A stretch of 64,000 bases of DNA from Cellulomonas sp. KH9 (GTDB lineage Bacteria; Actinomycetota; Actinomycetes; Actinomycetales; Cellulomonadaceae), in NCBI RefSeq assembly GCF_900114185.1, contig NZ_FOSE01000002.1, forward strand, positions 745,909 to 809,908, read 5' to 3'. Below the pieces are notes generated by a model. It saw only the letters and a list, made by a program, of their open reading frames with translations, ran no database searches and had not been told where the DNA came from. Both the position numbers and the translations under genes were made by a program. Shown here in pieces: positions 9,617-21,795 of this stretch. Within the stretch, counting starts at the first letter, position 1, and every line of letters starts with the position of its first letter.

Positions 9617-9676
9617 TCGTCGGGGGCCGGGATTGCGTTTTCCGCCCGATCTGTGACACCCTCGTCCGGGCGCTGA

Positions 9677-9688
9677 GAAACCGGTTTC
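9677..9688. promoter_or_regulatory. putative LacI-type operator GAAACCGGTTTC (copy 1)
   Basis: A perfect 12-bp palindrome with a central CG, 29 bases before the pectate lyase start codon, so it would overlap a promoter or the start of the transcript. The identical 12-mer occurs upstream of the second pectate lyase at 21377-21388. The size, symmetry and central CG fit LacI/GalR-family operators, which commonly control polysaccharide-use genes. The regulator itself is not in the window. Confidence 0.6.
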
Positions 9689-9717
9689 CGGCGCCGTCAG
9701 GAGACGAAGGGGTCCCC

Positions 9718-11748
9718 ATGCGTGACGCTCTGCCCCCGCACCCGACGCGCGGCACGCCCCGCCGGTGGGTCGTCGTCCTCGCCACCCTCGCGACGGCGCT
9801 GGTCGCCGTCCCCGCACCCGCGTCCGCCGGCGGCGACACGGGCGGCGAGGCCCGTGATCTCGGCCGCGAGACCCTCGCCCCCGGTGACGGCTGGGCCTCG
9901 TGGTCGGGCGTCTCGCGTCCGGAGGGCCGCGTCGTCCAGGCCACCGGCACCACGGGGGGCGCCGACGCGGCCGCGGCACAGGTGTACGTCGTCGACACGT
10001 GGACGCAGCTGCGCGACGCCCTCGGAGGGCGCCCCGGCTCCACCGGCACCACGGCGCGCACGGTCACCGAGCCCCGCATCGTGTACGTCCGCGGCACGAT
10101 CGACGCGTCCGTCCGCGCCGACGGGACCCGCGCCACGTGCGACGACCACGCCCGCCAGGTCACCGTCGCCGGGAGCGGAGCGCCCTTCTCCATGGCCGGC
10201 CACATCGCCCACTTCGACCCCGAGGGGCCGTGGGGGCGCACCGACCCCAGCGGGCCGCTCGAGGACGCCCGGGTGGCGGCCGCGGCCGTGCAGGCCGCCC
10301 AGACGCAGCAGCACGTCGGGTCCAACGTGACGATCGTCGGCGTCGGGGACGCCCGCATCGTCGGGGCCAACCTGCGGATCCGGGACGCGTCGAACGTGAT
10401 CGTCCGCAACCTGACGCTGTCCGACGCCTCGGACTGCTTCCCCCAGTGGGATCCCGGTGACACCGGCGCCGGCAACTGGAACTCCGCCTACGACAACCTC
10501 TCCGTGTGGTCCTCGACCAGCGTGTGGGTCGACCACCTCCGGCTCGACGACGGGGACCACCCCCCGGCCACGACCCGGACCGTCTACGGGCGCCCGTACG
10601 AGGTGCACGACGGGCTGCTCGACGTCACCCACGGCTCCGACCTCGTCACCGTCTCGTGGACGCACTTCCACGACCACGACAAGACGAGCCTGGTCGGCTC
10701 GTCGGACTCGCGGACGCAGGACCGCGGGCAGCACCGCGTCACGTACCACCACAACCTCTGGACGGACGTGGGCCAGCGCGCGCCCCGGGTGCGGTACGGC
10801 GACGTCCACGTCTACAACAACGTCTACGAGCAGACGCGTGCAGCCGGGTACACATACCTCCTGGGTGCGGGCGTCGAGTCGAGCATCGTCGCCGAGCAGA
10901 ACGTGGTCGACCTGGCCCCCGGCGTCGACCCGGCGTCCGTGGTCACGGCCTGGAAGGGCACCATGCTGCGCGAGGAGGGCACACTGGTCCGGGGCGAGCC
11001 CGTGGACCTGGTGGCCGCCTTCAACGCCACCGCGCAGCCCCCGCTCCTGGACACGGCGCGGTGGACCCCCGGGGACCACTACGCACCGGACGTCCAGCCC
11101 GCGGATCAGGTCGCCGACGCCGTCCGCGCGGGTGCGGGTGCCACGCTGCCGTCGGGCACACCGGGCGCGTCGCGCGCTCCTGACGCCCCGTTGCTCTCCC
11201 ACGACGACGGCTGGGACACGGGGCTGCACGACGGTCGGTTCACCGTCACCTCCACCCTGTGGTGGGGCCAGAACGCCACCGTCGTGCGGCTCCTGGAGAA
11301 CGGCGTGCTGGTCGACGCACAGCGGGTGGACCCGCGCACCCCGCACGCGCAGCGCGCGACGTTCACCGTCTCCGGGCGACCCGACGGCACGTACACGTAC
11401 GTCGCCGAGGCGCTCAACCCCTGGGGGACGGCCCGCTCCGCCCCGCTCACGGTCACCGTGAGCGACGCGAGCCCGGGCACCCCGCGACTGAGCGCCGCGA
11501 CAGGGGCCGACGGCACGCCGACCGTGACGGCGACCCTCTGGTGGGGCACCAACGCCACCGAGTACGTGCTCACCGCCGACGGGGTCGAGGTCGACCGCCA
11601 GGTACTCGTCGCGCGCACACCGCACGGCCAGACCGTCAGCACGTCCACCGCCGGCTGGGCGCCGGGCACGCACACCGTCGTCGCGACGTTCCGCAACGCG
11701 GTCGGTGAGGCCTCGAGCCTTCCCCTCGAGGTGCGGGTCGGAGGCTGA
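9718..11748 (+). CDS. secreted pectate lyase (PL1 type) with two C-terminal repeats
   Basis: 676 aa from ATG at 9718, preceded by GACGAAGGGG. A signal peptide ends at PASA (about residue 37). The parallel beta-helix catalytic part (about 85-440) carries VWVDHL (calcium-site region), TYHHNLW and RAPRVRYGDVHVYNN, the hallmark motifs of pectate/pectin lyase family 1; the Arg in RAPRVR is the expected catalytic base. It cleaves polygalacturonate by beta-elimination outside the cell. Residues about 495-584 and 586-676 are two related repeats (each with TLWWGxNAT and RTPH), probably beta-sandwich accessory modules. A palindromic operator lies just upstream. Confidence 0.92.
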   Translation: MRDALPPHPTRGTPRRWVVVLATLATALVAVPAPASAGGDTGGEARDLGRETLAPGDGWASWSGVSRPEGRVVQATGTTGGADAAAAQVYVVDTWTQLRDALGGRPGSTGTTARTVTEPRIVYVRGTIDASVRADGTRATCDDHARQVTVAGSGAPFSMAGHIAHFDPEGPWGRTDPSGPLEDARVAAAAVQAAQTQQHVGSNVTIVGVGDARIVGANLRIRDASNVIVRNLTLSDASDCFPQWDPGDTGAGNWNSAYDNLSVWSSTSVWVDHLRLDDGDHPPATTRTVYGRPYEVHDGLLDVTHGSDLVTVSWTHFHDHDKTSLVGSSDSRTQDRGQHRVTYHHNLWTDVGQRAPRVRYGDVHVYNNVYEQTRAAGYTYLLGAGVESSIVAEQNVVDLAPGVDPASVVTAWKGTMLREEGTLVRGEPVDLVAAFNATAQPPLLDTARWTPGDHYAPDVQPADQVADAVRAGAGATLPSGTPGASRAPDAPLLSHDDGWDTGLHDGRFTVTSTLWWGQNATVVRLLENGVLVDAQRVDPRTPHAQRATFTVSGRPDGTYTYVAEALNPWGTARSAPLTVTVSDASPGTPRLSAATGADGTPTVTATLWWGTNATEYVLTADGVEVDRQVLVARTPHGQTVSTSTAGWAPGTHTVVATFRNAVGEASSLPLEVRVGG

Positions 11749-11771
11749 CGCGGCCGGGTCCGCCCGGCCAC

Positions 11772-11806
11772 GCGCCGCCCGTCCGCCCTCCCCGGACGGG
11801 CGGCGC
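11772..11806. terminator. bidirectional hairpin terminator
   Basis: A perfect 14-bp stem (11772-11785 with 11793-11806) and 7-base loop between the convergent pectate lyase and sigma factor genes. It can serve both strands. Confidence 0.75.
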
Positions 11807-11877
11807 ACCGCTCGTCCGGGGCCCACCGCTGGTCCGGGACCGTCCGCGCGTCGGCGCCGCGGGCACAACCCTCACAG

Positions 11878-12978
11878 TCAGTCCAGCTCGGTCGGCAGCC
11901 CGAACCGCGCGAACAGGTCCTCGTCGAACCACGCCGTCACGTGGCGCACCCCCGCCGCGGTCACCGCGACCTGCTGGAGCTGGAACGCGCGGTGCCTGCC
12001 CTCGGCGTCGCGCATGTACATCGCGAACGACGGCAGGCCGTTGGCCGCGGTCGGTACCAGGCGCATGTCCCCCGCCGCCCGGGCCGGGCACCACGTGCCG
12101 ATGAGCTCGCCCACCGCGCGCGGGCCGGTGTACCACCCGGGGAAGGGCGGCATCTCCCACACGACGTCCGCGGCCAGCAGCTCGACGATCGCGGCGACGT
12201 CGTACGCCTCGAAGGCCGCGACGTACCGGGCGAGGAGCTCCTGCCGGCGCGGGTCGGTGGGCTCCAGGGGCGTGACGTCCTGGACGTTGGCCATGTGGGC
12301 CCGCGCCCGCTGCAGCGTGGAGTTCACCGCGGCCACCGACAGCGCCAGGGCGTCGGCCACCTCGGCGGCCGACCACGCGAGCACGTCCCGCAGCAGCAGC
12401 ACGGCACGTTGCTGGGCCGTGAGGTGCTGGAGCGCCGCGACGAAGGCGAGCCGCACCGTGTCGCGGTCCACCGTCGTCTCCGCCGGGTCGGCCGGGGCCG
12501 TGGCCCACACGAGGCGGTCGGGCATCGGCTCCAGCCACGCCGTGGCGTGGTCCTCGCGCGGCCGCTCGCGGGGGTCCGCGGCCGGCGCACCGAGTCCCGT
12601 GGGCAGCGGCCGGCGTCGCCGGCCCTCGAGGTGCGTCAGGCAGGTGTTGGTCGCGATGCGGAACATCCACGTGCGCAGCGACGACCGGTTCTCGAACCCC
12701 CGCATCGCACGCCACGCGCGCAGGTACGTCTCCTGCAGCATGTCCTCCGCGTCGTGCACCGACCCCGTCATCCGGTAGCAGTGCGCGAGGATCTCGCGGC
12801 GCAACGGTGCGAGCCGCGCCGCGAAGTCGTCCGCCGTCAGGTCCTCGGCGCCGGGGCCGGCCCGCTGTCCGGCGCCGGGGCCGGGCTCCGGGGCGCGGCT
12901 GCCGGCGGTCCCGCCAGCGGCCGGCGGGGCCGGCTGGGTCGTGGCTCCGGTCGTGGTTCCCGATGTGGTCGTCGTCAC
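11878..12978 (-). CDS. sigma-70 family (ECF) factor with SnoaL-like C-terminal domain
   Basis: 366 aa from GTG at 12978. After a disordered Thr/Pro/Gly head (about 45 residues) comes region 2 (LAHCYRMTGSVHDAEDMLQE, LRAWRAMRGFENRSSLRTW), then region 4 (LTAQQRAVLLLRDVLAWSAAEVADALA). The last 120 residues (RYVAAFEAYDVAAIVELLAADVVWEMPP onward, abridged) are a SnoaL/NTF2-like domain. This layout matches the SigG / TIGR02960-type ECF group, which lack a classic anti-sigma factor and are thought to be self-regulated by the tail domain. A VOC-family gene starts divergently 112 bases away and may be a target or partner. Confidence 0.88.
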   Translation of the reverse strand: MTTTTSGTTTGATTQPAPPAAGGTAGSRAPEPGPGAGQRAGPGAEDLTADDFAARLAPLRREILAHCYRMTGSVHDAEDMLQETYLRAWRAMRGFENRSSLRTWMFRIATNTCLTHLEGRRRRPLPTGLGAPAADPRERPREDHATAWLEPMPDRLVWATAPADPAETTVDRDTVRLAFVAALQHLTAQQRAVLLLRDVLAWSAAEVADALALSVAAVNSTLQRARAHMANVQDVTPLEPTDPRRQELLARYVAAFEAYDVAAIVELLAADVVWEMPPFPGWYTGPRAVGELIGTWCPARAAGDMRLVPTAANGLPSFAMYMRDAEGRHRAFQLQQVAVTAAGVRHVTAWFDEDLFARFGLPTELD

Positions 12979-13089
12979 ACTTCGACGGTAGCGGCCACCA
13001 CCGACATCGTCACCACCCGACGAGACCCGGCCTCCGCGCCGGTCGGCACACCCACGACGTCCCTCCGTCCCGCACCGCAGGGAGCACCC

Positions 13090-13491
13090 GTGGACCGCAT
13101 GATCGTCGTCAACCTGCCGGCCCGGGACCTGACCGCGTCGCGCGGGTTCTACACCGGCCTCGGCATGGTCGTGGACGAGATGCTCAGCGACGAGGACGTC
13201 GTCTGCGTGCTGGTGTCGCGCACGGTGTGCGTCATGCTGCTGCGCCCCGCGCGGTTCGCGGAGGTCACCGGGCTGCCCGTGGTCGACGCCCGCACCGCGA
13301 CGCAGGTCGTCCTCTGCCTCGCTGCACCGTCGCGCGCCGACGTCGACGCCCTGGCCGCCGCAGCCCTGGCCGCGGGCGGGACGGAGGTCGGGGCGGACCC
13401 CCGCACCACGTCTCCGTACGCGCGGACGCTCGCCGATCCCGACGGGCACGTCTGGGAGCTGCTGCACCCGGGCTGCGCACCGGACACCTGA
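13090..13491 (+). CDS. VOC (glyoxalase/bleomycin-resistance superfamily) protein
   Basis: 133 aa from GTG at 13090, with GGGAGCACCC upstream. Two paired beta-alpha-beta-beta-beta units are visible: it opens with IVVNLPARDLTASRGFYTGL and closes with TLADPDGHVWELLHPG; the final Glu is the typical metal-ligand position of VOC proteins. The exact activity (dioxygenase-like, glyoxalase-like, or binding protein) is not clear. It is divergent from the SnoaL-tailed sigma factor, so the two may share a control region at 12979-13089. Confidence 0.83.
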   Translation: MDRMIVVNLPARDLTASRGFYTGLGMVVDEMLSDEDVVCVLVSRTVCVMLLRPARFAEVTGLPVVDARTATQVVLCLAAPSRADVDALAAAALAAGGTEVGADPRTTSPYARTLADPDGHVWELLHPGCAPDT

Positions 13492-13526
13492 CGTCGAGCA
13501 GGCCGCCGCGTGCCAGACTCGGTGCC

Positions 13527-14033
13527 GTGCCCGCCCCCGTCGACGCCTACGCCCCGGACGACCACCTCGACGGGCGCACGCTCCTCGTCGCGGCCGCCTA
13601 CGTCGTCCTGCGGCGCCCCGGGGACGACGGCGACGAGGTGCTGCTGCAGCGCCGCGCCGGCACCGGGTACATGGACGGGTGGTGGGGGCTGCTCGCGGGC
13701 CACGTCGACCGCGACGAGTCCGTCCACGAGGCGGCCGTGCGCGAGGCGGCCGAGGAGTCGGGCGTGGTCGTCGCACCCGACGCGCTGCAGCCCCTGACCG
13801 CGCTGCACCGGTTCGAGCGCGGCGGCCCGCAGGTCGAGCAGCGCGTCGACGTCTTCTTCCTGGTGACCCGGTGGACCGGCGAGCCCACGCTGCGGGAGCC
13901 CGACCGGGCCGCCGCCATGGGCTGGTTCCCGCTGCGCGCGCTGCCGGGGCGGGTCGTGCCGCACGAGCGCCTCGTGCTCGACCTGCTCGCGTCCGGCTCC
14001 CCCGTGCCGGCGGTCGTCTCGCTCCCCCGCTGA
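13527..14033 (+). CDS. Nudix hydrolase
   Basis: 168 aa from GTG at 13527. The Nudix box runs from GHVDRDES through REAAEESGV and has every required Gly, Glu and Arg, so a metal-dependent pyrophosphohydrolase acting on a nucleoside diphosphate-linked compound is expected. It is preceded by LLQRRAGTGYMDGWWGLLAG, typical of MutT/ADP-ribose-type members. Substrate unknown. It lies 35 bases after the VOC gene on the same strand and may be cotranscribed with it. Confidence 0.88.
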   Translation: MPAPVDAYAPDDHLDGRTLLVAAAYVVLRRPGDDGDEVLLQRRAGTGYMDGWWGLLAGHVDRDESVHEAAVREAAEESGVVVAPDALQPLTALHRFERGGPQVEQRVDVFFLVTRWTGEPTLREPDRAAAMGWFPLRALPGRVVPHERLVLDLLASGSPVPAVVSLPR

Positions 14034-14197
14034 GCCCTCACCCCGCCCCGCTGAGCCCTCGTCCCGCCCCGCTGAGCCGTCGCCCGACCCTGCCGGGCCG
14101 CGCTGCTCCGGCACCCCTCGCCCCCCGCTGAGCCGAGCGGGTGGAACGTCGCCCCCCGCGGCCGCGCCCGGCTCCGCACGGGCACCGGCGGGCTACC

Positions 14198-15703
<1,506 letters not shown>

Positions 15704-15725
15704 CCAGCCCGGGCAGCACCGGGGC

Positions 15726-15810
15726 GCACGGCACCGAGGGGCACGGCACGGACCCGCACGGCACGGACCCGCACGGCAGGGACCCGCACGGCAGGGACCC
15801 GCACGTCACG
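15726..15810. repeat. 15-bp tandem repeat array
   Basis: Units start at 15726, 15741, 15756, 15771, 15786 and 15801. Copies at 15741 and 15756 are identical (GCACGGCACGGACCC); those at 15771 and 15786 differ from them by one base (GCACGGCAGGGACCC); the outer two are degenerate. It lies in the gap between the convergent AAA+ ATPase and ppc genes, just before a hairpin. The 15-bp unit keeps reading frame, but no start codon or gene is supported across it. Confidence 0.85.
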
Positions 15811-15825
15811 GGCGGCCGGACGCCC

Positions 15826-15862
15826 GACGCCCCCGCGCCGACCGGGTCGGTGCGGGGGCGTC
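15826..15862. terminator. hairpin terminator between AAA+ ATPase and ppc
   Basis: A 16-bp stem (15826-15841 with 15847-15862, one G-T pair) with a CCGGG loop. It lies 18 bases beyond the ppc stop and 122 bases beyond the ATPase stop, so it probably ends both convergent transcripts. Confidence 0.75.
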
Positions 15863-15880
15863 GTGGCGGACGCGGGGGTG

Positions 15881-18556
15881 TCAGCCCGTGTTCTGCAGAC
15901 CGGCCGCGACGCCGTTGACCGTGAGCAGCAGCAGCCGGCGCAGCTCCTCCGCCGACTGCGGGTCCTGGCCCGTGCGCAGCCCGCGCAGGGCGCGCAGCTG
16001 CAGCAGCGACAGGGCGTCCACGTACGGGCTGCGCAGCTGCACGGCACGTCCGAGGATCCGCCGGCGCGAGAGCACGCCCGTGCTGCCGGTGGTGGCCAGC
16101 ACCCACTGCCGGGTCAGCCGCATCTCGTCGAGCACCTGCTGCGCCAGGTCGTCCCGGTCGCCCAGGGCCAGGTAGCGGGCGGCGATGCGCTCGTCGGTCT
16201 TCGCGAGCGACATCTCGACGTTGTCGATGATCGTCGCGAACAGCGGCCACTCGGCGTAGGCCGTGCGCAGCTCCTCCACGTCGCCGACCGTGTCGAGCGC
16301 CGTGCCGAGCCCGTACCACCCCGCGAGGTTGATGCGGGCCTGCGACCAGGAGAACACCCACGGGATCGCCCGCAGGTCGTCCAGCGACGAGACGGACAGT
16401 CCGCGGCGGGCCGGTCGGGAGCCGATCGGCAGCAGACCGATCTCCTCCAGCGGGGTGACCTGGGCGAACCAGGCCGGGAACCCCTCGGAACGGACCAGCG
16501 CGTGGAACCGCTCGCGGGACGCCACGTCCAGGCGGGACGCCAGGTCGGCGAACCGCGCGGCGGCCTCGGTGTTGCGCTGCGCGACGCTCGGCGCGTCGGC
16601 GAGCAGGGTCGCCGCGGCGACCTGCTCGATGTGGCGCGTGGCGATGTCGGGGTCGCCGTACCGGGCGAAGATGACCTCGCCCTGCTCGGTGAGCTTGAAC
16701 CGGCCGTCGACCGAGCCCGGGGGCTGGGCGAGCACGGCACGGTTGGCCGGGCCGCCCCCACGGCCGAGCGCACCGCCACGCCCGTGGAACAGCGTGAGCA
16801 CGATGTCGTTGCGACGCGCCCAGTCGGCGATCCGGCGCTGCGCGTCGTCGAGGGCCAGTGTCGCCGAGAGCGGCCCGACGTCCTTGGAGGAGTCGGAGTA
16901 GCCGAGCATGACCTCCACGCGCCGGCCGTTGGCCGCGAGCCGCTCCTGCACCCGCGGGTGCTCGAGGGCGGCGTCGAGGATCTCGACGCTGTTCTGCAGG
17001 TCCGCGAACGTCTCGAACAGTGGGATCGCGTCGATGACGGGCGCGTGCTCCGGCCCGCCGAAGGCCAGATCGGCCAGCCGGTAGACCGCCGGCAGGTGCT
17101 CGGGCGACTGCGTGAAGGACACGATGTAGCGCCGTGCCGCGGCGACGCCGAGCCGGCGCTGGACCGTCCCCAGCGCGCGGAAGGTGTCGAGGACCTCGAC
17201 GGTCATCGGCTGCAGGTCGCCGTCGACGCCGTGCTCCTCGATGTCCGCGAGCGCGGCCGCGTGCACCTGCGAGTGCTGCCGCACCTCGAGCTCCGCGAGG
17301 TGGAAGCCGAAGGTCTGCACCTGCCAGATGAGCCGCTGCAGGTCCCCGTACGCGGCGCGCCGGGCGCCGGCCGACTGCAACGAGTCCTGCACGGTGCGCA
17401 GGTCCGCCTCGAGCTCGTCAGGGGTGGCGTACGCGAGGTCGGCGTCGCGCCGACGGGTCGCGGCGATCCGCTCGATGATGCCCAGCAGGGCGCGCCGGTG
17501 CGGCTCGTTGGGGGCGTCGCCCGCGATGCGGGAGGTCATCGCGTCCGACAGCGAGCGCTGCCGCTGCCACAGGGCGCTGAGCTCGGGGGACGCGGGGGTC
17601 CCGGCCGCGTCGAGGGTGAGGCCGTCGGCCGTGCGGCGTGCGGACACGAGCAGCGCGTCGAGGGCGTGCTCCGAGGCCAGCGCCGCCGCGGCGCGCGTCA
17701 CCTCCGCCGTGACGTTGGGGTTGCCGTCGCGGTCGCCGCCGATCCACGAGCCGAGCCGCGCGAACGGCGCGACCAGGGGCGCGGTGGTGCCGGCGTCCCG
17801 CTCGAGCAGCCAGTCGTCCAGCCGCCGGTAGACCGTGGGCAGCACGTCGGCCAGCGTCGAGTCGACGATCGACAGGACGGTGGCGACCTCGTCGAGGACG
17901 GTCGGCTTCTCGGCCCGCAGCGGGGAGGTGCGCCACAGCGTGTCGATCTCGGCCAGCAGGCGGCGCTCGTTCTCCGCCAGCGTGGTCCCGCCGATGTGCA
18001 GCGCGTCGCGCTCGGCGACGAGCTCGGCGATGCGCCGGATGGCGCGCGCGACCGCGCGCCGGCGGGCCTCGGTCGGGTGGGCGGTGAAGACCGGGCGGAA
18101 CTCGAGGTCGCGCAGGCGGGCGCGGGCCTCGTCCTCGCCCACCTCGGCGACGAGCTGCTGGTACGCCGCCGGCAGCGAGTCGTCGGGAGCCAGCTCGTGG
18201 GGCGCCAGGCGCGACTCACGGTCGTGCAGCACGCGGACGCGGTGGTACTCCTCGGCCAGGTTGGCGAGGTGGAAGTAGCACGTGAACGCCCGCGCCACCT
18301 GTTCCGCCCGCTCGTGGCTGAACCCGGCGACGAGCTCCTCGGCCTGCGCCAGCGCGTGCCCGTTGGGCTCGCTGTGCGAGGCGATGGCGAGCTCGCGCAG
18401 GCGCTCGACGTCGGCGAGCAGGTCCTCCCCGCCGGCCTCGCGCAGCACACGTCCCAGCAGCTCCCCGAGGAGCCGGACGTCGTTGCGCAGGAGCTCGGGT
18501 ACCTCATGGCTGACGACGCCGCGAGGGACGTCCGGCCTGATCTCGGCTTCTGTCAC
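15881..18556 (-). CDS. ppc: phosphoenolpyruvate carboxylase
   Basis: 891 aa from GTG at 18556, the usual bacterial length. It adds bicarbonate to PEP to make oxaloacetate, refilling the TCA cycle. Diagnostic motifs: FTAHPTEARRR (catalytic His), GGDRDGNPNVT, GYSDSSKDVG, FHGRGGALGRGGGP, FSWSQARINLAGWYGLG, and the conserved C-terminal end QNTG, which is the allosteric/active-site tail of PEPC. The start is supported by family length rather than by a good ribosome site. It is a single gene, ended by the hairpin at 15826-15862; the gene at 18639 is divergent. Confidence 0.97.
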   Translation of the reverse strand: MTEAEIRPDVPRGVVSHEVPELLRNDVRLLGELLGRVLREAGGEDLLADVERLRELAIASHSEPNGHALAQAEELVAGFSHERAEQVARAFTCYFHLANLAEEYHRVRVLHDRESRLAPHELAPDDSLPAAYQQLVAEVGEDEARARLRDLEFRPVFTAHPTEARRRAVARAIRRIAELVAERDALHIGGTTLAENERRLLAEIDTLWRTSPLRAEKPTVLDEVATVLSIVDSTLADVLPTVYRRLDDWLLERDAGTTAPLVAPFARLGSWIGGDRDGNPNVTAEVTRAAAALASEHALDALLVSARRTADGLTLDAAGTPASPELSALWQRQRSLSDAMTSRIAGDAPNEPHRRALLGIIERIAATRRRDADLAYATPDELEADLRTVQDSLQSAGARRAAYGDLQRLIWQVQTFGFHLAELEVRQHSQVHAAALADIEEHGVDGDLQPMTVEVLDTFRALGTVQRRLGVAAARRYIVSFTQSPEHLPAVYRLADLAFGGPEHAPVIDAIPLFETFADLQNSVEILDAALEHPRVQERLAANGRRVEVMLGYSDSSKDVGPLSATLALDDAQRRIADWARRNDIVLTLFHGRGGALGRGGGPANRAVLAQPPGSVDGRFKLTEQGEVIFARYGDPDIATRHIEQVAAATLLADAPSVAQRNTEAAARFADLASRLDVASRERFHALVRSEGFPAWFAQVTPLEEIGLLPIGSRPARRGLSVSSLDDLRAIPWVFSWSQARINLAGWYGLGTALDTVGDVEELRTAYAEWPLFATIIDNVEMSLAKTDERIAARYLALGDRDDLAQQVLDEMRLTRQWVLATTGSTGVLSRRRILGRAVQLRSPYVDALSLLQLRALRGLRTGQDPQSAEELRRLLLLTVNGVAAGLQNTG

Positions 18557-18638
18557 GGGAGAAAGGTAGTTGACCCGGCGCACGGTGCGCCCGCCCCGAC
18601 CGCCCTGTGGTCGCGGCGGCGCGTGCCATGCTGGGCGC

Positions 18639-19073
18639 GTGAGCTGGTTCCGCCGTCGCCCCGAGGTCCCGGCCGACGTCACCACCGGGTTCTGCGCGGC
18701 GGAGGCGCCGGCGATGCAGCGCTCGATCCTCGCCGCCCTGGGCATGGGCGACCGCCCCGCGCCGGCGCGGGTCCCGGCACGGCTGGTGGTGGAGCACGGC
18801 GCCGACGACCGGCTGGTCCTGGTCTGGCGCAACGTCATCGTCGGCTTCGTGCCCGCCGGGGCGGCACCGCCGCTCGCGGCCGCGCTCGCGGCGGCCGGGG
18901 ACGCCGCGCTGGTCGTGCCGGGCGTGGCGCACCGGACGGACGGCACGTGGCGCATCTGGGTCGGCGACGTCCCCGACGACGGCTTCCCGCCCGTGCCCGA
19001 GGGGCTCGACACGCTGCCACCGCCCGAGCCGACGATCCTCGGTGTGCCCGTGAGACGCCCGGACGGGCACTGA
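18639..19073 (+). CDS. conserved hypothetical protein
   Basis: 144 aa from GTG at 18639. The product opens with SWFRRRPEVP and holds two hydrophobic beta-rich stretches (RLVLVWRNVIVGFVPAG and AALVVPGVAHRTDG) and an acidic, Pro-rich end. No signal peptide, membrane segment or known motif is evident. It is divergent from ppc with 82 bases between, and followed 58 bases later by a MarR regulator on the same strand. Coding is supported by codon bias and position; I do not recognise a function. Confidence 0.65.
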   Translation: MSWFRRRPEVPADVTTGFCAAEAPAMQRSILAALGMGDRPAPARVPARLVVEHGADDRLVLVWRNVIVGFVPAGAAPPLAAALAAAGDAALVVPGVAHRTDGTWRIWVGDVPDDGFPPVPEGLDTLPPPEPTILGVPVRRPDGH

Positions 19074-19098
19074 CGCACACCGCGGCACGCGGCTCATC

Positions 19099-19112
19099 GT
19101 TGTCGCTTCAAC
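19099..19112. promoter_or_regulatory. possible MarR autoregulatory site
   Basis: A short inverted repeat (GTTG, 6-base gap, CAAC) lies 20-33 bases before the MarR gene start, close to a possible -10 hexamer TACCCT at 19120-19125. MarR proteins often bind such sites in their own promoter. The arms are only 4 bp, so this is weak. Confidence 0.3.
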
Positions 19113-19131
19113 ATCGGCGTACCCTGGAGGA

Positions 19132-19629
19132 GTGACCTCCGAGACCCCCTGGCTGACGCCGGCCGAGCTGCGCGCCTGGCTCGGGCTGGTGGCCGTCGCC
19201 GAGCTCCTGCCGGCCCAGCTCGACTCGCAGCTGCAGCGCGACGCCGGTCTGACGCACTTCGAGTACCAGGTGCTGGCGATGCTGTCCGAGGCGGAGGACC
19301 GCACGCTGCGGATGTCGGCGCTGGCCCGCCGCACCAACGCCACGCTCCCCCGCCTCTCGCACGTCGTGCGCCGGCTCGAGGAGCGCGGGCTGGTGGAGCG
19401 GGCGCCGTGCGCCACGGACCGCCGCGCGACGAACGCGCACCTCACGCCCGACGGCTGGGACCTGGTGGTGCGGACGGCCCCGGGGCACGTCGCGACCGCC
19501 CGGGCGCTCGTGATCGACGCGCTGACGCCCGAGCAGGTCACCCTGCTCGAGGAGCTCAGCCGGGCGATGCTGCACCGCCTCGACCCCGAGGGGCGCCTCA
19601 CGCCGCCGCTCGACGAGCTCGCCGGCTGA
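19132..19629 (+). CDS. MarR family transcriptional regulator
   Basis: 165 aa from GTG at 19132, with TGGAGGA directly before it (unusually close). The winged helix shows in TLRMSALARRTNATLPRLSH (recognition helix) and VVRRLEERGLVERAPCATDRR (wing), with dimer helices at both ends (LPAQLDSQLQRDAGLTHFEY; PEQVTLLEELSRAMLHRLD). Ligand unknown. The next gene is the convergent pectate lyase, but nothing shows that this protein controls it; the palindrome upstream of the lyases looks like a LacI-type site, not a MarR site. Confidence 0.9.
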   Translation: MTSETPWLTPAELRAWLGLVAVAELLPAQLDSQLQRDAGLTHFEYQVLAMLSEAEDRTLRMSALARRTNATLPRLSHVVRRLEERGLVERAPCATDRRATNAHLTPDGWDLVVRTAPGHVATARALVIDALTPEQVTLLEELSRAMLHRLDPEGRLTPPLDELAG

Positions 19630-19691
19630 CGACGCCGCACGGCCGGGGGCGGCCGGGGCGCGCTGCCCCGACGACCCCCGACCGGACCGGC

Positions 19692-21275
19692 TCAGCCGGC
19701 GTACGTCTCGACCTCCGCGACGCGCGGTGTGCCGGTCGACGCGAGGATCTCCACGTTGAGCTTGGTCAGGGACGTGGCCCGGAAGGTCAGGGTCCCGGCA
19801 CCGTCGCCCGTGGCGAGCACGGCGCCCGTGGAGTTGTCGACGACCCGCCACGCCCCGACGGACCCCGCGGAGCCTGCCGGCTCGCGCAGCACGACCCGGG
19901 CGACCGTGGTCGCCGAGCCCCACTTCACCGAGATGCGGCCCGTCGAGCCGTTCGGCTGCCAGTACGTGCTCAGCGAGCCGTCGATCGCGTTGCCGTAGCT
20001 GGTGCCGCCGCCCTTGCCGGAGCCGTCGGCGCCCGCGCCCAGGCTGAGGTTGCGCCCCACGGGCGGCGCGGTGGGCGTCGGCGTGGACGGCTGTGCCGAC
20101 GGAATGGGGCCTGCGGTGGGGCCCGTGGTCGGCGCGGACGTCGGCGCCGCCGTGGGTGCCGGGCTCTGCGGCGTGCAGGACCCGTTCGACACCTGGTTGC
20201 CCTTGTTCGCCCCCGCGGTGGCCCGCACCAGCGCCGGCACGCAGCTCGCGCCGTCGAGCCGGTACGAGTACGGGACCGAGACCGTGGTGGTCGACGTGAC
20301 GTTCGGACCCGCGGGGTTCGTGTCGCTCCCCCGCGACGACCAGGTCACGTCGTCGAACACGTTGCCGGAGACCTGCCAGTAGCCCGGCAGGTCCGTGTAG
20401 AACGTGCCGAGCACGTCCTTCGAGTCCTCGAAGTAGTTGTTGTCGACCTTGGCCCTGCCGCCGGCGCGGGCGTTGATCCCCGACTCCTTGATGCCGACGT
20501 AGTGGTTGTTGAAGATGTGCGCCGTCGCCCCGCGCAGCAGCGGCACGCGTGAGTCGAGGTTCTCGTAGAGGTTGTGGTGGTAGGTCACCGGGCCGTTGCC
20601 CAGGTCGCTGTCGCCGGACCCGACGAGGCCCCCACGGCCGGAGTTGCGCAGGATGCTGTACGAGAGCGTCACGTACCGCGTGTCTCCCTTCATGTCGAAC
20701 AGGCCGTCGTACCCCTCGGACTCCCCGCCGGACGCCTCGAGCGTCACGTGGTCGACCCAGACGTTGCTGACACCGCTCTCCATGCCGATGGCGTCGCCGC
20801 CGTTGGACGTGGGCGACCCGGACTTCTTGACGTTCCGGACGGTGACGTTCTGGACGATGATGTTGCGCGCCTCGCGGATGTGGATGCCGACCTGGTCGAA
20901 CACCGCGCCGCTGCCGACGCCCACGAGCGTCACGTTGCTCACCTGCTTGAGCTCGATGACGCCGGCGGCCGTGCTGCAGCTGCTGCCGGAGACCTTGGCG
21001 GTGTTGGCGTGGTTGACGGTGCCGGACACCTCGATGACGATCGGGGTGCTGCTGCTCGCGCGGCCGCACAGGGCCTCGTGGATCTGGGTGCCGGTCGTGG
21101 CGCGGACGGTCCGCCCGCCGGCGCCGCCGGTGGTGCCTCCGTTCTGCGAGGCGAAGCCGTCGGCGGCGCCGGTGGCCGCCTGGGCAGGGATGGTCAGCAC
21201 GGACACGCCGACGGCCGTGGCCAGGGCCGCAGCGACCCCGGTCGCCAGGAGTCGTGTCGCGACAGGTCGTCTCAT
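19692..21275 (-). CDS. secreted pectate lyase (PL1 type) with C-terminal F5/8 type C-like domain
   Basis: 527 aa from ATG at 21275. A signal peptide ends at PAQA (about residue 33). The beta-helix lyase domain (about 45-350) has VWVDHVTLE, TYHHNLYENLDSRVPLLRG and AHIFNNHYVG. A Pro/Thr linker (about 368-407) leads to a 120-residue C-terminal domain (NAIDGSLSTYWQP, RVVLREPAG, FRATSLTKLNVEI) typical of F5/8 type C (discoidin-like, CBM32-type) carbohydrate-binding modules. It differs from the first lyase in accessory modules but should act on the same kind of substrate. The identical palindrome lies 101 bases upstream of its start codon. Confidence 0.92.
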   Translation of the reverse strand: MRRPVATRLLATGVAAALATAVGVSVLTIPAQAATGAADGFASQNGGTTGGAGGRTVRATTGTQIHEALCGRASSSTPIVIEVSGTVNHANTAKVSGSSCSTAAGVIELKQVSNVTLVGVGSGAVFDQVGIHIREARNIIVQNVTVRNVKKSGSPTSNGGDAIGMESGVSNVWVDHVTLEASGGESEGYDGLFDMKGDTRYVTLSYSILRNSGRGGLVGSGDSDLGNGPVTYHHNLYENLDSRVPLLRGATAHIFNNHYVGIKESGINARAGGRAKVDNNYFEDSKDVLGTFYTDLPGYWQVSGNVFDDVTWSSRGSDTNPAGPNVTSTTTVSVPYSYRLDGASCVPALVRATAGANKGNQVSNGSCTPQSPAPTAAPTSAPTTGPTAGPIPSAQPSTPTPTAPPVGRNLSLGAGADGSGKGGGTSYGNAIDGSLSTYWQPNGSTGRISVKWGSATTVARVVLREPAGSAGSVGAWRVVDNSTGAVLATGDGAGTLTFRATSLTKLNVEILASTGTPRVAEVETYAG

Positions 21276-21376
21276 CGTTGCCTCTTCTCGTCGTCGAGCA
21301 CGGTCGGACCGGTGCGTGCCCCGCGGGATGCACCGTCCGGCCCGGTCGCACCGCGACGATGCGGTGCACTGGGACG

Positions 21377-21388
21377 GAAACCGGTTTC
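21377..21388. promoter_or_regulatory. putative LacI-type operator GAAACCGGTTTC (copy 2)
   Basis: Perfect 12-bp palindrome identical to 9677-9688, here in the 226-base region between the pectate lyase (minus strand) and the small gene at 21502 (plus strand). A further sequence GAGCGCTTTC at 21401-21410 is partly like the core of cellulose-regulator (CelR) boxes, but matches poorly outside the centre. Confidence 0.6.
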
Positions 21389-21501
21389 TCGACCGTAGGC
21401 GAGCGCTTTCCCCCGCAGCAAGGTGTCCGCGGGCGACGAAACCTTTAGCCGCCGGCCCCGGCCCCTCGACCCCGGCCGCCCGCCCGTGCCACGCTGCCCG
21501 G

Positions 21502-21795
21502 ATGAGCGCCCTGACGTTGTGCTGCCTGCTGCGGGCCGTCCCCGGCCGGGAGGCGGCCCTGCAGGCCTACGAGGACGCCGTGCTGGCCCTGCTGCCCGAC
21601 CACGGCGGCAGCGTCCTGCAGCGCGCCGTGGGCGACGGGGGCGACGGGCAGCCGCACGAGGTCCAGATCCTGCGGTTCCCGGACGCGGCAGCGCTCGACG
21701 CCTACGTCGCCGACCCCCGGCGCGCGCGGATGGCCGACGAGCGGGACCGGGTCGTCGCCCGGACGGAGGTGTTCCCGGTCGCCCTGCGGACCTGA
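21502..21795 (+). CDS. small DUF1330/dimeric alpha-beta barrel-like protein
   Basis: 97 aa from ATG at 21502. The pattern LTLCCLLRAVPGREAALQAYEDAVLALLPDHGG (shown in part) followed by HEVQILRFPDAAALDAYVADPRR looks like the ferredoxin-like dimeric barrel of DUF1330 or antibiotic-monooxygenase-type proteins. No catalytic residues can be assigned. It stands alone and ends just before a large hairpin. Confidence 0.7.
   Translation: MSALTLCCLLRAVPGREAALQAYEDAVLALLPDHGGSVLQRAVGDGGDGQPHEVQILRFPDAAALDAYVADPRRARMADERDRVVARTEVFPVALRT

What the first reader, a model, noticed from the sequence alone, without database searches (positions are those of the whole stretch)
9677..21388. Two distant pectate lyase genes share one 12-bp palindromic operator
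GAAACCGGTTTC is found at 9677-9688 (29 bases before one lyase) and 21377-21388 (101 bases before the other), in opposite gene orientations and about 12 kb apart. A perfect 12-mer recurring only at these two promoters is unlikely by chance. Its size and central CG fit a LacI-family repressor, so the two secreted lyases probably form a pectin regulon with one regulator encoded elsewhere.
Basis: partly seen in the sequence, partly recalled or inferred. Interest (0 to 1): 0.7.

Follow-up and report, generated by a model that had tools for sequence, protein, structure and literature searches.

The report
Pectin regulon of a LacI-type repressor
A soil bacterium places the same 12-letter DNA switch in front of two pectin-cutting enzyme genes, and a near-copy pair in front of a distant regulator gene and sugar-uptake operon, so these most likely form one pectin-response circuit that many relatives share; this is a sound but fairly ordinary kind of circuit.

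Summary
GAAACCGGTTTC occurs exactly twice in the 4.17 Mb genome, at these two promoters. The only one-mismatch copies are a pair 45 bp apart between a sugar ABC transporter operon and a LacI-family gene on another contig. The two lyases are the genome's only PF00544 (PL1) genes.

In 81 genomes of the genus (Cellulomonas, judged from a named relative), the exact site occurs in 23 of 29 genomes with this regulator and 2 of 52 without. Of 30 exact sites, 28 precede pectin enzymes (21 Pel1, 5 Pel2, one pectinesterase, one weakly assigned PelX-like protein); the other two lie in the two genomes lacking the regulator. The operator pair is kept before 27 of 29 regulators. Candidate promoter positions suit a repressor.

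Unforeseen: the regulator is a LacI protein fused to DUF6807, and both lyase promoters share a second conserved element. Binding, inducer and sign of control are untested. The 12-mer equals the core of the published PtxS operator: a new member of a known kind.

The parts
9677..9688 (.). Operator B1, GAAACCGGTTTC, 29 bp before pel1
   Evidence: the exact site also precedes 20 Pel1 orthologues in the genus
9718..11748 (+). pel1: 676-aa predicted secreted PL1 pectate lyase
   Evidence: PF00544 E 1.7e-45; signal-like N-terminus by eye
9633..9638 (+). Candidate -35 (TTGCGT) of pel1
   Evidence: read by eye from the footprint of 21 Pel1 promoters; the consensus scanner found no promoter
9657..9662 (+). 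Candidate -10 (CACCCT) of pel1, 18 bp after the -35
   Evidence: by eye; inferred
9630..9643 (+). Element A of pel1 (GGATTGCGTTTTCC), a second conserved block that overlaps the candidate -35
   Evidence: ATTGCG found in 21 of 21 Pel1 promoters; aligned on it, the consensus is GGATTGCGcTTnCC
21377..21388 (.). Operator B2, GAAACCGGTTTC, 101 bp before pel2
   Evidence: exact or one-mismatch site before 19 Pel2 genes including this one
19692..21275 (-). pel2: 527-aa predicted secreted PL1 pectate lyase
   Evidence: PF00544 E 1.3e-31; signal-like N-terminus by eye
21392..21397 (-). Candidate -10 (TACGGT) of pel2; operator B2 starts 3 bp downstream of it
   Evidence: TAnnnT at this place in 18 of 19 Pel2 promoters listed (L144 has GACATT); inferred
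21416..21421 (-). Candidate -35 (TTGCTG) of pel2, 18 bp spacer
   Evidence: by eye; the consensus scanner found no promoter
21398..21411 (-). Element A of pel2 (GGAAAGCGCTCGCC), a second operator-like imperfect palindrome between -35 and -10
   Evidence: consensus ggaaa.cg.tc.cc over 19 Pel2 promoters; place confirmed by the genome search

Best explanation
The two 12-mers are operators of one LacI-family regulator, a fusion of LacI and DUF6807 encoded on another contig (C2:665035-667047). It most likely represses four promoters: pel1, pel2, the divergent ABC sugar-transporter operon, and its own gene, which overlaps a Gfo/Idh/MocA oxidoreductase gene. A pectin breakdown product imported by that transporter would bind the periplasmic-binding-protein-like domain, release the repressor and switch on lyase secretion and uptake together. 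Shown: the sites, their near-uniqueness, the linkage to one LacI gene, conservation and co-occurrence. Inferred: binding, repression, the identity of the inducer, the transporter's substrate.
For: Two exact and two one-mismatch sites in the genome; the one-mismatch pair lies directly upstream of a LacI gene. That protein has LacI HTH, Peripla_BP_3 and DUF6807; its segment GVSRATVSRVMNG is found in no other of the 28 LacI HTHs of the genome. Relatives at E 1e-100 or better in 29 of 81 genus genomes; an operator pair 45 or 46 bp apart in front of 27 of the 29. Exact site in 23 of 29 genomes with and 2 of 52 without, Fisher p 1.2e-12, phylogeny ignored. 28 of 30 exact sites precede pectin enzymes. 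Of 30 one-mismatch sites outside the divergon in 15 regulator-bearing genomes, 22 precede pectin genes. By my reading the sites overlap a -35 or lie about 3-15 bp after a -10.
Against: No binding or expression data. The rhamnogalacturonan lyase (PL11) gene two genes from the regulator has no site within three mismatches in its promoter. Of the same 30 one-mismatch sites, 5 lie inside genes and 3 are unassigned. One-mismatch hits have background: 49 of 60 genus genomes have a match within one mismatch, most of the genomes without this regulator included. The Pel1 sample was found through its exact site and is biased; the planned search of lyase promoters in regulator-less genomes failed. In genomes below the 1e-100 threshold (G009, G028, G063) a LacI protein without DUF6807 but with the same segment sits beside near-copies, and 3 of 14 sites fetched from four such genomes (G009, G028, G035, G063) precede a PL1 or PL9-like gene, so the site is not read by the fusion alone across the genus.
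Confidence: 0.85

Rival explanations
1. The sites are operators of the same regulator, but it activates the lyases, or acts both ways, and does not simply repress them.
For: Some LacI-family proteins also activate (recalled, CcpA). A second conserved element A lies upstream in both lyase promoters, so control may be composite.
Against: Site B lies 3 bp after the candidate -10 in pel2 and about 3-15 bp after it in pel1 promoters, and over the candidate -35 of the regulator gene, places where a bound protein would block polymerase.
Confidence: 0.07
2. Another of the 27 LacI paralogues is the true reader of the two lyase sites, and the LacI-DUF6807 protein reads only its own promoter.
For: 28 LacI HTHs in the genome; one of them (L058) has a similar segment, GVSRATASRALAG. 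Two two-mismatch sites here lie beside other LacI genes (L006, L030). In two relatives a one-mismatch site lies between a different LacI gene and an altronate-dehydratase gene (L137, L142); in G065 an exact site lies before another LacI gene.
Against: No paralogue here has the identical segment; no other LacI promoter in this genome has a site within one mismatch; the exact sites co-occur with LacI-DUF6807.
Confidence: 0.06
3. The 12-mer is a chance repeat or a general promoter element.
For: Places within two mismatches are fairly common in this GC-rich genome (40 against 4 for the control).
Against: No control hit in 81 genomes against 30 exact sites, and 28 of the 30 beside pectin genes.
Confidence: 0.02

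Closest known systems
PtxS, LacI-family repressor of 2-ketogluconate genes in Pseudomonas (PMC5902321, passages only)
   Same: Published operator TGAAACCGGTTTCA contains this exact 12-mer; a site in its own promoter; site near the -10.
   Different: The flanking T and A are absent at both sites here; targets are pectin lyases and an ABC transporter, not gluconate genes; the regulator here carries DUF6807. The PtxS sequence was not compared.
LacI-family regulons in general (PMC4052901, passages only)
   Same: Even palindrome with central CG, autoregulation, upstream position; glucuronate/galacturonate regulators (ExuR, KdgR, UxaR, UxuR) are listed there.
   Different: A term search of its main text gave 0 for pectin, PtxS, Cellulomonas and fusion; its supplements were not seen.
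Actinomycetales LacI-type RhaR, rhamnose and rhamno-oligosaccharide regulon (PMC3870299, passages only)
   Same: LacI-type regulator of sugar and oligosaccharide uptake in actinomycetes.
   Different: Its motif was not available to me for comparison; here the targets are pectate lyases.
PecR and other pectin regulons of Caldicellulosiruptor bescii (PMC8579813, passages only)
   Same: Coregulated secreted pectate lyases, and uptake of pectin oligosaccharides by CUT1-family ABC transporters.
   Different: PecR is AraC-family and is encoded next to its lyases.

Membership tests
LacI/GalR family of transcription factors | LacI-type HTH at the N-terminus | tested here: met
   PF00356, 52 bits, cut-off 27
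LacI/GalR family of transcription factors | Periplasmic-binding-protein-like effector domain | tested here: met
   PF13377 E 3.7e-35; PDB matches to GntR, ribose repressor, CcpA and PurR entries
LacI/GalR family of transcription factors | Even palindromic operator with central CG | tested here: met
   GAAACCGGTTTC; rule from passages of PMC4052901
LacI/GalR family of transcription factors | Site in its own promoter (common, not universal) | tested here: met
   one-mismatch copies at C2:664888 and 664933 before the HTH at 665080; a pair before 27 of 29 relatives
LacI/GalR family of transcription factors | Operator binding released by a sugar ligand | not testable with these tools
   needs protein work
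PtxS orthologous group | Operator core GAAACCGGTTTC | tested here: met
PtxS orthologous group | Controls 2-ketogluconate genes (kgu, gad) | tested here: not met
   the site-bearing promoters of this genome (within one mismatch) serve two lyases, a transporter and the regulator with a Gfo/Idh/MocA gene
PtxS orthologous group | Sequence orthology to PtxS | not tested
   PtxS was not fetched
KdgR of soft-rot enterobacteria (recalled as IclR family) | IclR-type regulator | tested here: not met
   the Pfam scan of this protein lists LacI-type, periplasmic-binding-protein-like, general HTH and DUF6807 domains, no IclR

The most novel reading that the evidence does not exclude
The regulator is a sensor and enzyme in one chain: its DUF6807 half, which keeps conserved His-rich stretches and whose gene overlaps that of a Gfo/Idh/MocA oxidoreductase, chemically acts on a pectin-derived sugar, so that substrate turnover and not simple ligand binding sets lyase expression. 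DUF6807 would then gain a defined biological role.
Probability: 0.2. Interest if true: 0.65.

Novelty: new member of a known kind. Interest (0 to 1): 0.42.

Why it matters
It names a regulator, its operator and a testable regulon for pectin use in a genus of plant-biomass degraders (recalled), and it ties a domain of unknown function (DUF6807) to a pectin circuit. The 12-mer in front of a gene could serve to predict pectin-induced genes in about a third of the genus (29 of 81 genomes carry the regulator at 1e-100). The two-operator divergon with near-fixed spacing and the second shared element A are concrete objects for promoter work.

Tried and rejected
Chance or general promoter element: rejected. 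Sites at two mismatches as further regulon members in this genome: 25 of 36 inspected, none beside a gene recognised by eye as pectin-related, treated as background; 11 not inspected. PL11 rhamnogalacturonan lyase near the regulator as a member: no site within three mismatches in its promoter. Sigma-70 consensus scan of both promoters: nothing found, so the -35 and -10 assignments rest on conservation and my reading. Structure of DUF6807: single-sequence prediction gave mean pLDDT 36.8 and was discarded, with no fold search; no PDB sequence match at E 1. Papers: seven hold GAAACCGGTTTC (listing), of which I opened one (passages); one paper with DUF6807, which only counts it as a Pfam number; 'PmoA family protein' with LacI 0 papers; Cellulomonas, LacI, pectin and regulator together 9 papers, listing only, none showing such a regulon in title or abstract start; Cellulomonas, pectate lyase, transcription and regulon together 0; other searches. 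So I found no report of this regulon or fusion in that library, which lacks most subscription journals.
Full report
Observation. The window lies in a 4.17 Mb genome in 11 contigs. Genome-wide there are two exact copies, two one-mismatch copies and no copy of the reversed control within one mismatch; base composition predicts about 0.04 exact and about 2 one-mismatch copies. The genome has two PF00544 (PL1) genes, and both carry the exact site.

The regulator. Both one-mismatch copies (GAAACCGGTTCC and GGAACCGGTTTC) lie 45 bp apart on contig C2, in the gap between a leftward ABC transporter operon (two permeases and a solute-binding protein) and a rightward ORF. That ORF has a LacI HTH, a Peripla_BP_3 domain and a C-terminal DUF6807 domain. 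It overlaps by 4 bp a Gfo/Idh/MocA oxidoreductase gene; a PL11 rhamnogalacturonan lyase gene follows on the other strand. Of 28 LacI HTHs in the genome, this alone has GVSRATVSRVMNG; the nearest is GVSRATASRALAG in L058.

Conservation of regulator and operator. In 58 genomes (own, genus, order) 25 had a match at 1e-60. In 81 genus genomes 29 had one at 1e-100, own included. Of these 29, 26 match over both halves (G025 in two pieces); G072 and G013 are partial on short contigs, and G100 matches in the LacI half only. In front of 27 of the 29 an operator pair is present: 26 with both copies within one mismatch, one (G025) with one copy at two mismatches; start-to-start spacing is 46 bp in 21 and 45 bp in 6. 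The other two are G072, whose gene is cut by a contig end but which has a pair on another contig, and G100, with single sites. The 1e-100 line was my choice: three genomes just below it (G009, G028, G035; 1e-94 to 1e-96) match in the LacI part only and have no exact site.

Conservation of targets. The exact 12-mer occurs 30 times in 25 of 81 genomes; the reversed control never. It occurs in 23 of 29 regulator-bearing and 2 of 52 other genomes (Fisher p 1.2e-12, relatedness ignored). Of the 30 sites, 21 precede Pel1 genes (20 by BLAST, the window's own included, one read by eye in L186), 5 Pel2 genes, one a pectinesterase gene (L122) and one a gene for a PelX-like beta-helix protein (L148; NCBIfam PelX E 2.3e-68 but below its cut-off; Pfam Beta_helix below cut-off). 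The two others, before a gene that looks like recO (by eye, G063) and before another LacI gene (G065), lie in the two genomes without this regulator. In the 15 regulator-bearing genomes that had one-mismatch sites outside the divergon, I fetched all 30 such sites: 14 precede Pel2 orthologues, 4 a third PL1 lyase with ricin-type lectin domains, 2 a PL3 lyase, 2 an altronate/galactarate-dehydratase gene that faces another LacI gene; 5 lie inside called genes and 3 are unassigned, two of these near PL1 fragments at contig ends. Five regulator-bearing genomes, own included, had none; nine were not searched at one mismatch. Pfam was run on representatives only.

Against a tight link with the fusion. 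Within one mismatch, 49 of 60 genus genomes have at least one match, so single one-mismatch hits carry background. I fetched 14 sites from four genomes without the regulator (G009, G028, G035, G063): 3 precede a PL1 or PL9-like gene (L174, L171, L176), and in three of these genomes a LacI protein without DUF6807, with the same recognition segment in the two that I read (L172, L157), sits beside near-copies, a Gfo/Idh gene and a similar ABC transporter. The LacI half is therefore probably enough to read the site. The search of Pel2 promoters in regulator-less genomes failed twice.

Promoter anatomy. Aligned on the site, 18 of 19 Pel2 promoters have TAnnnT three bases before the operator, and 21 Pel1 promoters share GGATTGCG, then TG..A...T, before it. 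In the divergon the inner operator overlaps a candidate -35 of the regulator (TTGGGA, 17 bp, TATGTT-like), and the outer one lies about 9 bp after a candidate -10 of the transporter operon. These assignments are mine; the consensus scanner, run on the two window promoters, found none. The layout fits steric repression.

A second shared element. Both lyase promoters carry another conserved block A: consensus ggaaa.cg.tc.cc in Pel2 and GGATTGCGcTTnCC in Pel1. It resembles cre-like LacI operators (recalled). Within one mismatch of GGAAAGCGCTYTCC the genome has pel2 and three further places, beside a gene that looks like a GH51 arabinofuranosidase and beside oxidoreductase or transporter genes, names by eye; within two mismatches the pattern (9 forward, 12 reverse) is little above its control (7 and 4). 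Control of the lyases may therefore be composite. The A-to-B distance in Pel1 promoters falls in two classes, 33-34 bp (9) and 45-47 bp (12).

What is known. The 12-mer is the core of the PtxS operator TGAAACCGGTTTCA of Pseudomonas (PMC5902321, passages), so the motif type is not new. LacI-family sites are mostly even palindromes with central CG, as here (PMC4052901, passages). I found no paper in the held library on this regulon or on a LacI-DUF6807 fusion (listings, and passages of four papers).

Limits. No binding or expression data; the genus name is from the nearest named relative (Cellulomonas telluris, 84% identity of the regulator); the Pel1 sample was found through its exact site; genomes are related, so counts are not independent.

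Verdict.

Noticed in passing
9630-9643 (+) and 21398-21411 (-): A second conserved, operator-like element (A) in both lyase promoters, resembling cre/LacI sites; three more places within one mismatch in the genome beside sugar-type genes (by eye), though within two mismatches it is little above its control.
   Followed up: partly
L016:10035-12050 (C2:665035-667047): LacI repressor fused to DUF6807; 26 of 29 genus relatives match over both halves, and the fusion also appears in a different family of the same order (G047, 57% identity).
   Followed up: partly
L172:5600-6628, L157:5129-6151: Related LacI proteins without DUF6807 but with the same recognition segment, next to a Gfo/Idh gene and a similar ABC transporter, with near-copies of the site.
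   Followed up: partly
L016:13247-15523: CBM2-PL11 rhamnogalacturonan lyase gene beside the regulator without the 12-mer; a second LacI gene is divergent from it.
   Followed up: partly
21502-21795 (+): 97-aa ORF divergent from pel2, 113 bp from operator B2; the same neighbour is kept in G069 (L152), so it may share control.
   Followed up: no
L126, L130, L132, L153, L158, L163, L167: In these seven loci the Pel1 site lies between pel1 and a divergent conserved 180-aa protein gene about 62-63 bp away, possibly co-regulated.
   Followed up: no
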